Assembly (NCBI RefSeq): GCF_037975245.1
Contig: NC_092582.1
Location: 19,122,577-19,186,576, forward strand
DNA from: Apostichopus japonicus
Taxonomy: Eukaryota; Echinodermata; Holothuroidea; Aspidochirotida; Stichopodidae
Direction of reading: 5' to 3'
Length of the DNA: 64,000 bases
Part shown: positions 49,601-55,600 of the stretch, piece by piece
How the letters are laid out: every line of letters begins with the position of its first letter
Position numbering within the stretch: the stretch's first letter is position 1
Position numbers and translations under genes: made by a program
The notes under the pieces: generated by a model
Database searches by the model: none
Told to the model about the DNA's origin: nothing
The model's input: only the letters and a program-made list of their open reading frames with translations

Positions 49601-52600
49601 CTACAACACTATTAAATGTAACTCCAGAAGTTATCAAACATCACCACTTTTTACTATAACTCCAGAATTTATCAAACTACACCACTATTAAATGTAACTC
49701 CAGAAGTTATCAAAACAACACCACTACTAGATGTAACTCCAGAAGTTAACAAACTACACCACTATTAAATGTAACTCCAGAAGTTATCAAAATACACCAC
49801 TAACAAATGTAACTCCAGAAGTTATCAAACTACACCACTATTAAATGTAACTCCAGAAGTTAACAAACTACACCACTAATAAATGTAACTCCAGAAGTTA
49901 ACAAACTACACCACTATTAAATGTAACTCCAGAAGTTATCAAACATCACCACTATTTACTATAACTCCAGAATTTATCAAACTACTTCAGTATTTGAAAC
50001 AGCTAAGATTTGGGGTGCCACAAGGATCTGTACTTGGTCCTTTGATATATTGTATGTTTACCCGTCCAGTTGGAGAAATAATTCAGCGCCATAACATCAA
50101 CCATCACTGTTATGCTGATGATACGCAATTGTATTTGGATTTTGGTGCCCTTGAGTCCTGGAATGACGTATCATTAAAGCTCCAAGCATGCCTTTCAGAT
50201 ATAGTCAGGTGGATGCGGGTTAATTGTTTGAAACTTAACCAGGACAAAACTGAGTTCATTGTTTTTTCACCAAAATTTCAGGGTAATGCTATTCAAGACT
50301 TGCATATAAATATGGGACCTAACACCATATGTTCAGTTCCTAAAGTAAAGAATTTAGGTGTTTATCTTGATCACAGTCTTACCATGAATAATCAAGTTGA
50401 CTCTATCTGTAAGTCCTGTTATTGGCAGATCCGGAATATTGGCAAAATTAGAAGGTATATCTCAGATGATGCATGTAAGACTTTAATCCATGCCCTTGTG
50501 ACATCAAAACTGGACTACTGCAATGCACTGCTATATGGCCTGCCTCACAAGCTAACCGATCGCCTTCAGCGAGTTCAGAATCGCGCTGCACGGCTTGTAA
50601 GTCGCACTCGTAGACATGAGCCTATTACACCCATATTACGTGACTTACATTGGTTGCCGATTCATTGCAGGTTCAATTATAAGATTCTGTTATATACATA
50701 TAAGTCACTTAATGGTTTAGCCCCTATCCACCTCTCTGAATTAATGCATAAATACAAGCCTACTCGATCTCTACGCTCAGAATCCAAGTCCTTACTTACC
50801 AAACCTGTCATTAATACTTCTACATACGGAAACAGGCGTTTCGACTACTCATCTGCGACATTATGGAACAGTTTATCGGAGGAAGCTAAGTGTGCCAAAA
50901 ATATAGATGAATTTAAAAAACTAGTCAAAACCTTTCTATTTAGATCTGCATTCCATTAACTGTGTTTTCTATACTATATATTGTCACATTTTACAACGCA
51001 TTTTCCATTTTGCGATTTTGCGTTTATAGCGCTTTTAAATTTAAAAAATTTTCACATTTATATATATTTTAAATTTCAAGAATTTGTTTGTATCATTTTC
51101 GCTTTTACATTTGCAGTTTTTATACAATTTATTGTCAGTTGGTATTTAACAAATTTTCTACCCTTTTTATACCTTACATTATCGATTTATATATTTGTAT
51201 ATCATGATTGTTTGTATTTTACTGTAAAGCGCCTTAGAGCAATTTCTGATTGGATAAGGCGCTATAGAAATTTTGTATAATAATAAATAATAATAAATAA
51301 TAATAATAATATTTAATGTAACTCCAGAAGTTATCAAACTACACCACTAATAAATGTAACTCCAGAAGTTATCAAAATACACTACTATTAAACTCAAATC
51401 AAGTGCTAAAACCTTGTAAACTGCAGATGAAAGTTCATCCATGGTTAGGCTACAGAAATTACCTCAGCAATATATGGAGAAGGTATGCATTAATAAAATA
51501 GGCAATATATATATATATATATAAATGTAACTCCAGAAGTTATCAAACATCACCACTATTTACTATAACTCCAGTACACACCAGTAGAATCACTGTGGTC
51601 GAGTGGTACGGACTTCGGTTTGTGACACAATATTCGGGGGTTCAATTCCTACCTTCGCCTGATGAGTCCCAAAAGGACGAAACCGGTCGTGAAGTGGAAT
51701 TTTTCTGGTGTGTTATTCTTTATTGATTTACTATATATCTGTCATACCACTTGCTACACATTCAATTCTTATATATATATATATATTATATTTAATTTTC
51801 ATGCTACAATGGTCAGGTGGCAGTTACGTAACTAACATGCTGGAAACCAAAGTAGTAAATAACAGCTTAAGTCAAAAGGTTGAGCTCACCTTGCTGTCAG
51901 AAATCAAGACTGGATTTAAGGACGGTAACCGTTTAGGAGGAGGAGGCGGTGGGGGTTGGATGGCTGGACTACGAAGAGCGCTGCTGTGTTTCAACCTAGC
52001 AGATTTGACTGGGGACTGACTCGGTGACTTGCTGAGAACTCTCCTGTTTGCCACTCCTAAGAATTGCGGGTCCAATCTTTCTAGCATGGACACGCCTTTG
52101 TCGCCACACACTGCACATAGGACTTGCAGGACCGCGGAAAGTAGCTTCCTAAATTGAGGTAAAAAGAATAAAACAGAGAGAGTAAAAAGAAAAAAAATAT
52201 ATTGATGATACGTAGAAGTAGTGCAGGATGAAGGAAAGCATACGAAGAGAATGGGCAGAAGATTGATGAAAGGTTGCTTAATCCCCGGAATTGGGTCAGA
52301 AGAAAATAGAAGACTATTACGCCCAACGGTAGTTTCAAGGGATATTTACAAGACATAGCACCCTGCAATTATCAACACCTTCACTCAAAAAATAGCCCTT
52401 TGAGGAGGATGTTTTGCTAAGGATATTTGTTCTTTTGTTAATGGCAATGCACTTTCCATCAGAGATATGGTACAATTAAATTTATGCCTTACTGTGATGT
52501 AAAGGTGGATGGAATAATTGCATACATTTGTGCATATTGCATACATTGTGTACATTGTGTATATTGCATACATTATGTACATTGTGTATATTGGATACAT

Positions 52601-55600
52601 TGTGCACACTGCATGCATTGTGTACATTGCATACATTGTGTATATTAATTGCATATATTGTGTATATTGCATACATTTTGTACATTGCATACATAGCGTA
52701 TATTGCATACATTGTGTAACATTGCATACATTGTGCATACTTTACATACATTGTGCATATATTGCATACATTGTGCATATATTGCATACATTGTGTACAT
52801 TGCATACATTATGTACATTGCATATGTTGTGTACACTGCATACATTGTGTACATTGCATACATTGTGTATATTGCATACATTGTGCATATATTGCAAACA
52901 TTGTGCACATTGCATACATTGTGTCCAATTCTTGTATATTTGTCTCCTTCATTTTTAATATGTTTAATAATTTCCTGATCAGATTTTTCTGGCTATTAAC
53001 ATCCGAGGTAATTTCAAATCTATAAATAATGACTGCTGTGAAACCCCCCCAAAAAAGCTAAAAACTCATTGTGCATGAAATATTAACTCACTTGTTATGC
53101 GAGTTTCCCTCGAACATCAACAGAGTACCGACCTCCGCAAATCCCAGCTTTAACAAAAGCTCGCGATTGACATTCCCTCCCCAAACTGCAGCGACTCCAT
53201 GATCAGCAGATTTCAGCTGAATCTCAGGCATGTGTTTGGTGATAGCAAGCTGTTGGAGAAAAGAACTTCAATGTAATAAAAAAAAAAAAAAAGAAAAAAA
53301 AAAGCAAGAATTGGTGCAGCTTAATCCAGAAGAGATATGGAAGGATTTCAGGCTTATTCTTAATTTTTAATAGCTTTGCAAAATTTCCAAAGTCTCTGGT
53401 CTCTTAAACCTCTAGAGACAAAAGACTCAATATTACTTTAAGGAATTCATTTTCCTTGGATAAAAAATTGTACTTTAAAAAATGGAAAGCAAGTAAGAAA
53501 TGATAAAGCAAATACTATCCTGTCAAACTCACCAAATCGATCACATCCGAATGCACAGCTGAAGACTCGAGCAAAACTTTGGAGAGTGCGTAGCTACAAT
53601 CTGCTTGGTCAGACACGGCTATGTTAAACAGGGAAGAGAAATAAACCATGACTTTACATGAGGTTAGATAGTTTTGTATTATTTATGCAATCTTTCATAG
53701 CAATAAGATATGCACACAAAGTACATAAACATGATATATGTGATCAAAAGTGAACACAAGCCCCTTAATTCAGCCACCCGCAACCCCTACCCTTCCCCAT
53801 TCCTAACATTTACACCAGGTTATGACTGCATTAATCTGCCATGGGAGGGCAAGTAGTGGAACACTATAGAACGTTGCGAGCTGAACAGAACATTTAATGA
53901 ACTAATTTGAACAGAAATCAAATATATGACGAAACAATCTCCTATAGTAAAAATAAATTTGGAAGCTCTATCTTTTAGAGAGGCACAAATTAAAGACACA
54001 TGTATCAATGCTGTTTTATTTGTTCTAGTTTGGCTTACTTGCTATACCCTGTAGTGCCTGAATAGTTAAGTCCATTAACCTATCAGGGTCCCATTGAGGG
54101 TACAGGGCCACAGGTGGCTCAGTAGGGTCAATGCCACCGGCCTGGAAGTGGAACCCGACGAGAGAGAGAAGCTTGACCGCCGGTGTGGAGCTGGTGATAG
54201 AGGTAGAGATCTTCTGAACTGGTGGTTTGCTGTCTCTGGACTGGGTGAGTTCATGATATCCATTCATCTACAGCAAAACAATGGATTTCACATAGATACT
54301 AATTGTTTTTTTTATGAAAGAATGATACTGTCAGGCAGTGTACATTATTTACAATTCCTTTCAGTTATATGCAAGTTACTGAAAATTGCCTTTCAGACAA
54401 GTTAAGTAAGCTATTTTTTAGCCAAAAAATATATGAGAACTTGAAGTCCACAATACTGGGTGTTACTTTTATACAAATGCACAAACCGACTGATTTTATG
54501 CTGATAATTGAAGGGGATTAAGTGACAACGTACTATCAGGCTGACCATTATTACCAGAAATTAGAATGAAAATGTTTTTCAACCATCTGTCGGGGATATG
54601 TTGAACACGATTTTAAACGATTTTAAAAAGTCTAACATCAGTGTTAAAGGAATTGAAGACTCGCCCCAAACCGCGTGCCGCCCTCTGAAAAAAGTTAACT
54701 TTCCGTTGCTTGCAAGTGAAGTTTTCTTCTTGTCCCTACAAAATGTAGACAGTAATGAAACGTGATATTATCTGGACCTGAGATCAGGGACCTCCACACC
54801 AACTCCCTGCTGACATGTCCATCGCTGCTATGTACACTTGTGGTGTCTAACACTTCTGTTACACCTCATTCGAAACTAGGTCGGTATCCCGCATCAGACG
54901 GTTCTTTGTGCGCGAGTCTTTACTCCCTTTAAGTAACCTGCATTTACCATTGTGAAATGGTGATTAGCTTGTGATTACAACTGGTATACTATTAATACAG
55001 TAGTCTATCATCAGTGTTAAGTAACCTGCGTTTACAATGGTGAAATGGTTATTTGCTTGTGATTACAACTGGTATACTATTAATACAGTAGTCTATCATC
55101 AGTGTTAAGTAACCTGCGTTTACAATGGTGAAATGGTTATTTGCTTGTGATTACAACTGGTATACTATTAATAGTCTATCATCAGTGTTTAAGTAACCTG
55201 CGTTTACCATTGTGAAATGGTTATTAGCTTGTGATTACAACTGGTATACTATTAATAGTCTATCATCAGTGTTAAAGTAACCTGCATTTACCATTGTGAA
55301 ATGGTTGTTTGCTTGTGATAACAACTGGTATTCTATTAATAGTCTATCATCAGTGAAAAGTAACCTGCATTTACCATGGTGAAATGGTTGTTTGCTTGTG
55401 ATTACAACTGGTATACTATTAACAGTCTATCATCAGTGTTTAAGTAACCTGCATTTACCATTGTGAAATGGTTATTTGCTTGTGATAACAACTGGTATTC
55501 TATTAATAGTCTATCATCAGTGAAAAGTAACCTGCATTTACCATGGTGAAATGGTTGTTTGCTTGTGATTACAACTGGTATACTATTAATAGTCTATCAT

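What the first reader, a model, noticed from the sequence alone, without database searches (positions are those of the whole stretch)
51644..51701. Complete type I hammerhead ribozyme with palindromic minimal stem III
Core CTGATGA, stem II GTCC/GGAC with loop CAAAA, GAAA, ACCGGT and cleavage triplet GTC are all in place. Stem I pairs 6+6 bases around an asymmetric internal loop, the shape that allows loop-loop contacts with stem II. The ACCGGT stem III cannot form a stable hairpin alone, so dimeric action is expected, as described for Penelope-like elements and retrozymes. In the host pre-mRNA (opposite strand) it is antisense, so it should act only when its own element is transcribed.
Basis: partly seen in the sequence, partly recalled or inferred. 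Interest (0 to 1): 0.85.

Follow-up and report, generated by a model that had tools for sequence, protein, structure and literature searches.

The report
tRNA-headed hammerhead retroelement with Penelope-type insertions
The hammerhead ribozyme is real, and it belongs to a small jumping DNA element that carries a tRNA-like start and lands in TA repeats in the same peculiar back-to-back way as Penelope retrotransposons of the same genome, which suggests which machinery moves such ribozyme-bearing elements.

Summary
Rfam Hammerhead_1 matches 51653-51694 above its cut-off (38.8 bits against 34, E 2.8e-6), and in the predicted folds the ACCGGU stem III forms between two molecules, not in one. The motif is one 5'-truncated copy (about 51576-51770) of a dispersed family whose 25-nt core occurs 238 times exactly in the genome, with a 341-bp unit visible in a tandem copy. 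Its insertions carry the Penelope (PLE) signature: 3' ends at two points about 36 nt apart next to (TA)n; of 80 insertions 28 are two-ended, all head-to-head, and in the 16 whose two ends could both be classified exactly one end has the longer tail. PLE-B, a PLE family of the same genome, shows the same ends, target and one-tail pattern. Best reading: a tRNA-headed metazoan retrozyme/SINE moved by a PLE, its hammerhead acting as a dimer. Cleavage, expression and mobilisation are untested, and the tail shares no significant sequence with PLE-B.

The parts
51576..51770 (+). Copy of the retrozyme/SINE family: unit positions u229 to about u80, 5'-truncated, ending at 3' site 2
   Evidence: 200-nt match (51576-51775), 96% identical, to the 341-nt unit of L016; its last bases match only because the flank is TA-rich.
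51596..51606 (+). A-box-like TGGTCGAGTGG of the tRNA-like head
   Evidence: Read directly. Head against a tRNA-His gene of the same genome: score 38, 0 of 1000 shuffles as good, for the L016 head; 28, 4 of 1000, for this copy. That the two boxes are polymerase III promoter boxes is recalled knowledge.
51639..51649 (+). B-box-like GGTTCAATTCC (GGTTCGATTCC in most copies aligned), 43 nt from the A box; its 3' half is also part of the outer stem I strand
51644..51701 (+). Type I hammerhead ribozyme with outer stem I
   Evidence: Rfam RF00163 38.8 bits; folds
51682..51687 (+). Palindromic stem III ACCGGT; cleavage expected after C51688
51700..51704 (+). T5, a possible RNA polymerase III terminator just after the ribozyme
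   Evidence: ribozyme end plus T5 kept in 25 of 37 head-selected copies
51689..51770 (+). Tail holding the two 3'-end points: site 1 about 51733-51738, site 2 about 51769
   Evidence: End positions over the family
51770..51786 (+). (TA)n at the 3' junction
   Evidence: family

Best explanation
This is a copy of a small non-autonomous retroelement, a metazoan retrozyme that is at the same time a tRNA-headed SINE. Inferred cycle: (1) the head drives transcription by RNA polymerase III, or the element is read through from outside; (2) transcripts with two or more units let two hammerheads pair through ACCGGU and cut after C, giving 341-nt monomers that a host ligase can close; (3) a resident GIY-YIG Penelope-like element, most likely PLE-B, cuts both strands of a (TA)n tract and primes on the tail at two points about 36 nt apart, each used by one of the two target strands; (4) the two cDNAs, copied back through the ribozyme and head, are joined head to head, or only one is kept, leaving single 5'-truncated copies such as the one in the window. 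Shown here: the family, the head's similarity to tRNA, the ribozyme motif, the two end points, the target, the head-to-head order, the one-tail pattern and the parallel in PLE-B. Inferred: transcription, cleavage, circles, the priming steps and the identity of the enzyme.
For: Ribozyme. Family. Period of exactly 341 nt in a tandem dimer. Head: A/B boxes 43 nt apart; the L016 head scores 38 against a G000 tRNA-His (0 of 1000 shuffles), 34 and 17 against two tRNA-Thr, 18-24 against five tRNA-Lys. Ends: 40 of 109 at site 1, 34 of 109 at site 2, 35 elsewhere. Orientation: of 80 insertions 28 are head-to-head, 0 tail-to-tail, 52 single; in 16 of the 28 both outer ends could be classed, and all 16 have one site-1 and one site-2 end (1/11440 given the margins; 15 of 15 with the narrower classes). 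Target: a (TA)6 or longer run within 60 nt of 19 of 25 left and 19 of 25 right ends of two-ended insertions, against 0.2% of window tiles. PLE-B: of 21 3' ends read, 13 at site 1, 7 at site 2, 1 about 8 nt short of site 1, 20 of 21 in TA repeats; of 16 loci whose 5' side was read 6 are head-to-head; of the 5 with both ends read, 4 have one site-1 and one site-2 end and the fifth has a site-2 end and the short one. Published PLEs show this anatomy (PMC11167929, PMC3846280, read in part).
Against: The retrozyme and PLE-B tails show no significant similarity (global 68 of 500, local 133 of 500 shuffles as good), unlike classical LINE/SINE pairs, and the published trans-mobilised gene in rotifers carried the PLE's own pseudo-LTRs. 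PLE-A also ends in (TA)n. In the anole PLE no difference of start site between target strands was seen in vitro, and the rotifer authors explain head-to-head copies by self-priming instead. The T5 after the ribozyme would stop polymerase III before the tail. No tRNA model hit at E 10 or better; ARAGORN at its default finds no tRNA in 113 segments; an older head (L001) scores no better with tRNA-His (31) than with the best Lys (31) or Thr (31). 87 of 103 aligned pieces run through the cleavage site (partly selection, since many loci were picked by the ribozyme), so nothing shows that cutting is needed. Site 1 lies in TATATAT, so pairing with the target may help to define it. 35 of 109 ends and 12 of 28 two-ended insertions do not fit the two sites fully.
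Confidence: 0.74

Rival explanations
1. A tRNA-headed SINE moved by an ordinary LINE. The hammerhead is a passenger and the (TA)n is a tail made by slippage.
For: tRNA-like head, 5' truncation and a short non-coding body. A reverse-transcriptase frame, probably of a LINE, lies close by at 49889-50956.
Against: (TA)n also flanks the left end of 19 of 25 two-ended insertions. All 28 two-ended insertions are head-to-head, and in 16 of them both arms end in the tail, whereas twin priming by a LINE (recalled) inverts an upstream segment that starts inside the element. The end points and one-tail pattern match PLE-B.
Confidence: 0.12
2. A PLE relic: the hammerhead and tail are a terminal repeat of an unseen PLE that later captured a tRNA.
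For: A hammerhead followed by a tail with two end points is the layout of a PLE terminal repeat. The body has about the size of one (341 nt).
Against: None of the three PLE families read shares the sequence. Only the better-scoring PLE copies were listed, so a fourth family cannot be excluded.
Confidence: 0.1
3. A decayed repeat whose ribozyme motif is inactive and without function, spread by recombination between TA tracts.
For: 13 of 37 head-selected copies have a changed core. Stem III variants are mostly single changes (22 of 24).
Against: 94-97% identity among 39 dispersed long matches, an intact core in 24 of 37 head-selected copies, and ordered ends that recombination would not give.
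Confidence: 0.04

Closest known systems
Metazoan non-LTR retrozymes (Cervera and de la Pena 2020, PMC7229834; parts 1-4 of 6 read)
   Same: Type I hammerhead, small unit (there about 170-400 nt), low G+C, tandem copies, no coding, weak stem III that works better as a dimer in axolotl
   Different: A tRNA-like head and a definable insertion signature. The review PMC7761336 says retrozymes seem to have no promoter, and metazoan ones no motif that tells which element moves them (passages read).
Sm-alpha / Sj-alpha SINE-like elements of schistosomes (via PMC2770079, passages read)
   Same: SINE-like repeats with a hammerhead; SINEs similar to Sm-alpha there derive from tRNA-Gln
   Different: Probably another tRNA (best match His, then a Thr, of the eight compared). 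I saw no account of their insertion ends. A primary paper is not held.
Penelope-like elements (Penelope/Poseidon type)
   Same: Two 3' end points about 30-40 nt apart, AT-rich target, head-to-head inverted copies with an optional tail on one of them, partial tandems, hammerhead upstream of the tail
   Different: No reverse transcriptase or endonuclease; the ribozyme has a canonical stem II and an internal loop in stem I; a tRNA-like head is present.
Rfam Hammerhead_HH9 (RF02275)
   Same: Same layout; aligned over the whole model at E 1.6e-8 in a 701-base search
   Different: 39.6 bits, below its gathering score of 52. That HH9 is an amniote intronic motif is recalled.

Membership tests
Type I hammerhead ribozyme (RF00163) | Covariance-model score over the curated threshold with core CUGANGA...GAAA...UH | tested here: met
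   38.8 against 34 bits; core read directly
Type I hammerhead ribozyme (RF00163) | Self-cleavage | not testable with these tools
   Folds only
Metazoan non-LTR retrozyme | Short non-coding repeat (150-450 bp in PMC7229834) with a type I hammerhead, dispersed and in tandem | tested here: met
   341-nt unit; 18 of 103 aligned pieces longer than one unit, longest 777
Metazoan non-LTR retrozyme | Circular RNA of unit length | not testable with these tools
   No RNA data
tRNA-derived SINE | Internal A and B boxes at tRNA spacing and similarity to a tRNA gene of the host | tested here: met
   Boxes 43 nt apart; tRNA-His score 38, 0 of 1000 shuffles, for the L016 head; 28, 4 of 1000, for the window copy; 27-31, 0-5 of 1000, for three older heads. 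Isotype not resolved.
tRNA-derived SINE | Recognisable tRNA by covariance model or tRNA finder | tested here: not met
   No RF00005 match at E 10 or better; ARAGORN at its default 0 of 113 segments, at 90% of threshold 5 against 0 in shuffles, at 80% 39 against 3 (some of the 113 are chance anchors, not family members). The head is degenerate.
tRNA-derived SINE | Transcription by RNA polymerase III | not testable with these tools
   T5 after the ribozyme would give a short transcript without the tail
Element moved by a PLE | Two 3' ends, AT-rich target, head-to-head copies, one tail | tested here: met
   for the element; for PLE-B
Element moved by a PLE | Tail sequence shared with the PLE | tested here: not met
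Element moved by a PLE | Mobilisation depends on the PLE protein | not testable with these tools
   Needs a biochemical or cell assay
Penelope-like element | RT plus GIY-YIG open frame | tested here: not met
   The whole unit is 341 nt, too short for such a frame

The most novel reading that the evidence does not exclude
A PLE-dependent SINE: a retrozyme whose promoter (tRNA-like head) and whose mobilising enzyme class can both be read from its copies, with a rule that each double-primed insertion uses the two cDNA start points once each, so that exactly one end bears the longer tail.
Probability: 0.55. Interest if true: 0.75.

Novelty: new variant of a known kind. Interest (0 to 1): 0.62.

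Why it matters
Which enzyme moves animal retrozymes, and how they are transcribed, is stated as open in the texts that I could read (PMC7761336, passages; PMC7229834, parts 1-4 of 6). PLEs were proposed there from shared hammerheads, tandem copies and co-occurrence. Here the insertions themselves carry the PLE marks, in a genome with nearly identical PLE copies, and a candidate promoter is present. That makes the question testable with one RNA and one protein, and the one-tail pattern gives a prediction about PLE target priming.

Tried and rejected
A MITE reading (ACACACCAG...CTGGTGTGT inverted ends) was dropped: copies run far beyond both arms. A shared tail between retrozyme and PLE-A, B or C was tested: not significant for A and B; PLE-C gave one local score reached by 10 of 500 shuffles, among ten comparisons, not pursued. 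Covariation in stem III: 24 copies with base 15.3 changed, 2 of them double changes that keep the palindrome (ACGCGT, ACTAGT), 22 single changes; inconclusive. Selection on the ribozyme: in head-selected copies the core differs at 3.9% of positions, stem II at 4.7 and 6.1%, loop II at 7.6%, the tail at 10.7% (inflated by copies that end before it); not settled. Source tRNA: only eight tRNA sequences of three isotypes were compared; the L016 head fits His best (38), but the older L001 head scores 31 with His, Thr and one Lys alike. Host species: not identified. Rows dropped: one search removed repeated end keys and ends near a locus edge; one search removed 9 edge clusters of 77; one search removed 13 duplicates, 5 edge cases, 2 short pieces and pure TA matches; one search left out 3 of 40 head-selected rows as identical or of one array. 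L009 is the window itself and was not counted again. Copies were chosen by the head (L033-L072), by an exact core (L073-L112) or as best search hits (L001-L018), so old copies are under-represented.

Full report
1. The motif. At 51644-51701 (+) the sequence is a complete type I hammerhead. Rfam Hammerhead_1 scores 38.8 bits against a gathering score of 34 (E 2.8e-6 for 64 kb), and it is the only match in the window at or above a gathering score. RNAfold forms stem I as 6+6 pairs around UAC/U, and stem II. Alone, the molecule pairs part of the core with the stem III strand. Two molecules form the double hammerhead through ACCGGU, 4.1 kcal/mol better than two monomers. Compared with shuffles the monomer fold is ordinary (z -1.24, 24 of 200), so the evidence is the covariance model plus the family below.

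2. The family. The window lies in a 671.6-Mb genome of 35 contigs, host not named. The exact 25-nt core occurs 238 times, the pattern read backwards 0. A 171-nt query gives 49 listed matches, of which 39 long ones besides the window itself are 94-97% identical; the search scores only the best candidates, so such counts are lower bounds. In L016 two copies lie in tandem with a period of exactly 341 nt. I number that unit from the first base after the cleavage site (u1-u341). The window copy runs from u229 through the ribozyme to about u80, then (TA)n: a single, 5'-truncated unit. The inverted ends reported by the repeat finder lie inside the body and are not ends of a transposon.

3. The head. 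Upstream of the ribozyme lie TGGTCGAGTGG and GGTTCGATTCC (GGTTCAATTCC in the window copy), 43 nt apart, and the 3' half of the second is also part of the outer strand of stem I, so head and ribozyme are fused. The L016 head aligns to a tRNA-His gene of the same genome with score 38 (0 of 1000 shuffles), to two tRNA-Thr with 34 (0 of 1000) and 17 (363 of 1000), and to five tRNA-Lys with 18-24 (42 to 364 of 1000). The older L001 head does not separate them: His 31, Thr 31 and 16, Lys 20-31. The window head scores 28 with His (4 of 1000). Against a tRNA: cmscan gives none at E 10 or better, and ARAGORN at its default none in 113 segments; at 90% and 80% of the threshold it reports 5 and 39 against 0 and 3 in shuffles. 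It is a degenerate tRNA-like head of unresolved isotype. T5 follows the ribozyme at once (51700-51704), kept in 25 of 37 copies, and would end a polymerase III transcript before the tail.

4. The ends. Over 80 loci (L033-L112) and the window, 109 3' ends after removal of repeats and edges: 40 lie at u41-52 (site 1), 34 at u76-87 (site 2), 35 elsewhere. Merging 101 loci that bear the element, plus the window, gave 92 segments and 80 insertions (13 duplicates, 5 edge cases, 2 short pieces left out): 28 are two-ended in the order inverted-then-direct (head to head), none in the other order, 52 are single. With site classes u40-56 and u73-90, both outer ends fall in a class in 16 of the 28, and all 16 have one of each; given the margins that is 1 in 11440. 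With the narrower classes one drops out and it is 15 of 15. The other 12 have at least one end elsewhere. Of the 52 single insertions 28 end at site 1, 12 at site 2, 12 elsewhere. In the earlier clustering of 68 insertions a run of (TA)6 or longer lies within 60 nt in 19 of 25 left and 19 of 25 right flanks of two-ended insertions, in 26 of 43 3' flanks and 13 of 43 5' flanks of single ones, against 0.2% of window tiles. 87 of 103 aligned pieces run through the cleavage site (many loci were picked by the ribozyme, so this is partly selection) and 18 exceed one unit. Five ends lie within 6 nt of the cut, two of them in one tandem array. The template was therefore mostly uncut or resealed.

5. 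The Penelope elements. GIY-YIG hits led to PLE-A and PLE-B, whose frames carry RVT_1 and GIY-YIG by Pfam; PLE-C is a third family found by about 35% protein identity to PLE-B. Of 21 PLE-B 3' ends read, 13 are at site 1 (about 52 nt after the place that corresponds to the hammerhead cut; its core is degenerate), 7 at site 2 (about 81 nt) and 1 about 8 nt short of site 1; 20 of 21 run into TA repeats. Of 16 PLE-B loci whose 5' side I read, 6 are head to head (in two of these the inverted piece is only a short tail), and in 5 (L165, L167, L169, L171, L172) the 5' flank is a TA tract. Five of the six have both ends read: four have one site-1 and one site-2 end, and the fifth has a site-2 end and the short one. 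PLE-A: of 26 rows, 22 end at one point before TA repeats, 3 are inside tandem arrays, 1 ends elsewhere; PLE-A and PLE-C keep their own hammerhead-like sequences. The retrozyme tail has no significant similarity to the PLE-A or PLE-B tail.

6. Literature, with what I saw. PMC7229834 (parts 1-4 of 6): metazoan retrozymes, dimer action in axolotl, PLEs named as strong candidates. PMC7761336 (passages): no promoters seem present, and metazoan retrozymes show no motif that tells the mobiliser. PMC11167929 (parts 1-2 of 4): an anole PLE cuts and extends both strands of AT-rich DNA, starts cDNA at two internal sites, its tail is the stretch between them, no difference of start site between strands was seen, and hammerhead cleavage was not needed in vitro. 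PMC3846280 (passages): rotifer PLEs have an inverted terminal repeat at the 5' end, an optional 31-bp tail on one of the inverted repeats and mostly head-to-head order, which the authors explain by self-priming; a foreign gene moved in trans carried the PLE's pseudo-LTRs. PMC2770079 (passages): Sm-alpha SINE-like elements carry hammerheads, and SINEs similar to Sm-alpha derive from tRNA-Gln. PMC8490949 (passages): further schistosome repeats with short-stem hammerheads. PMC10886601 (passages): nothing that bears on this. The pairing of a tRNA-like SINE and a hammerhead is therefore not new in itself. In the listings of the searches, which cover open-licence papers only, I saw no report of a retrozyme or SINE with PLE-type ends.

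7. Judgement. The ribozyme motif is certain and its activity likely. Membership as a retrozyme with a tRNA-like head is well supported in anatomy. Mobilisation by a PLE, most likely PLE-B, rests on four shared structural marks (two end points, TA target, head-to-head order, one tail) and lacks shared sequence and any experiment.

Noticed in passing
window 49889-50956 (+): Open frame with a reverse-transcriptase domain (RVT_1, E 4.8e-14), probably a LINE remnant, about 620 bp upstream of the element.
   Followed up: no
window 51315-51574: Three copies of a 51-nt direct repeat (AATGTAACTCCAGAAGTTATCAAAC...) just before the element.
   Followed up: no
L028 (C12:16802200-16809900): Tandem PLE-A copies 3143 bp apart with open 933-aa frames; the full-length PLE-A copies listed are 96-100% identical in protein to the query, so this family looks recently active.
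   Followed up: partly
L153, L154 (C4:3.68 Mb): tRNA-His genes in tandem arrays of about 290-365 bp period; pattern matches suggest further arrays on C4, C5 and C6. tRNA genes crowd at C3:17.76-17.78 Mb; those read from there are, by order of output, tRNA-Lys.
   Followed up: partly
L083, L084: A diverged copy pair (78% identical to the unit) whose 3' end lies exactly at the ribozyme cleavage site, u341, followed by TATATATC: possibly an insertion from a cleaved RNA.
   Followed up: no
window 52385-53025: Low-complexity stretch that reads open in several frames on both strands.
   Followed up: no
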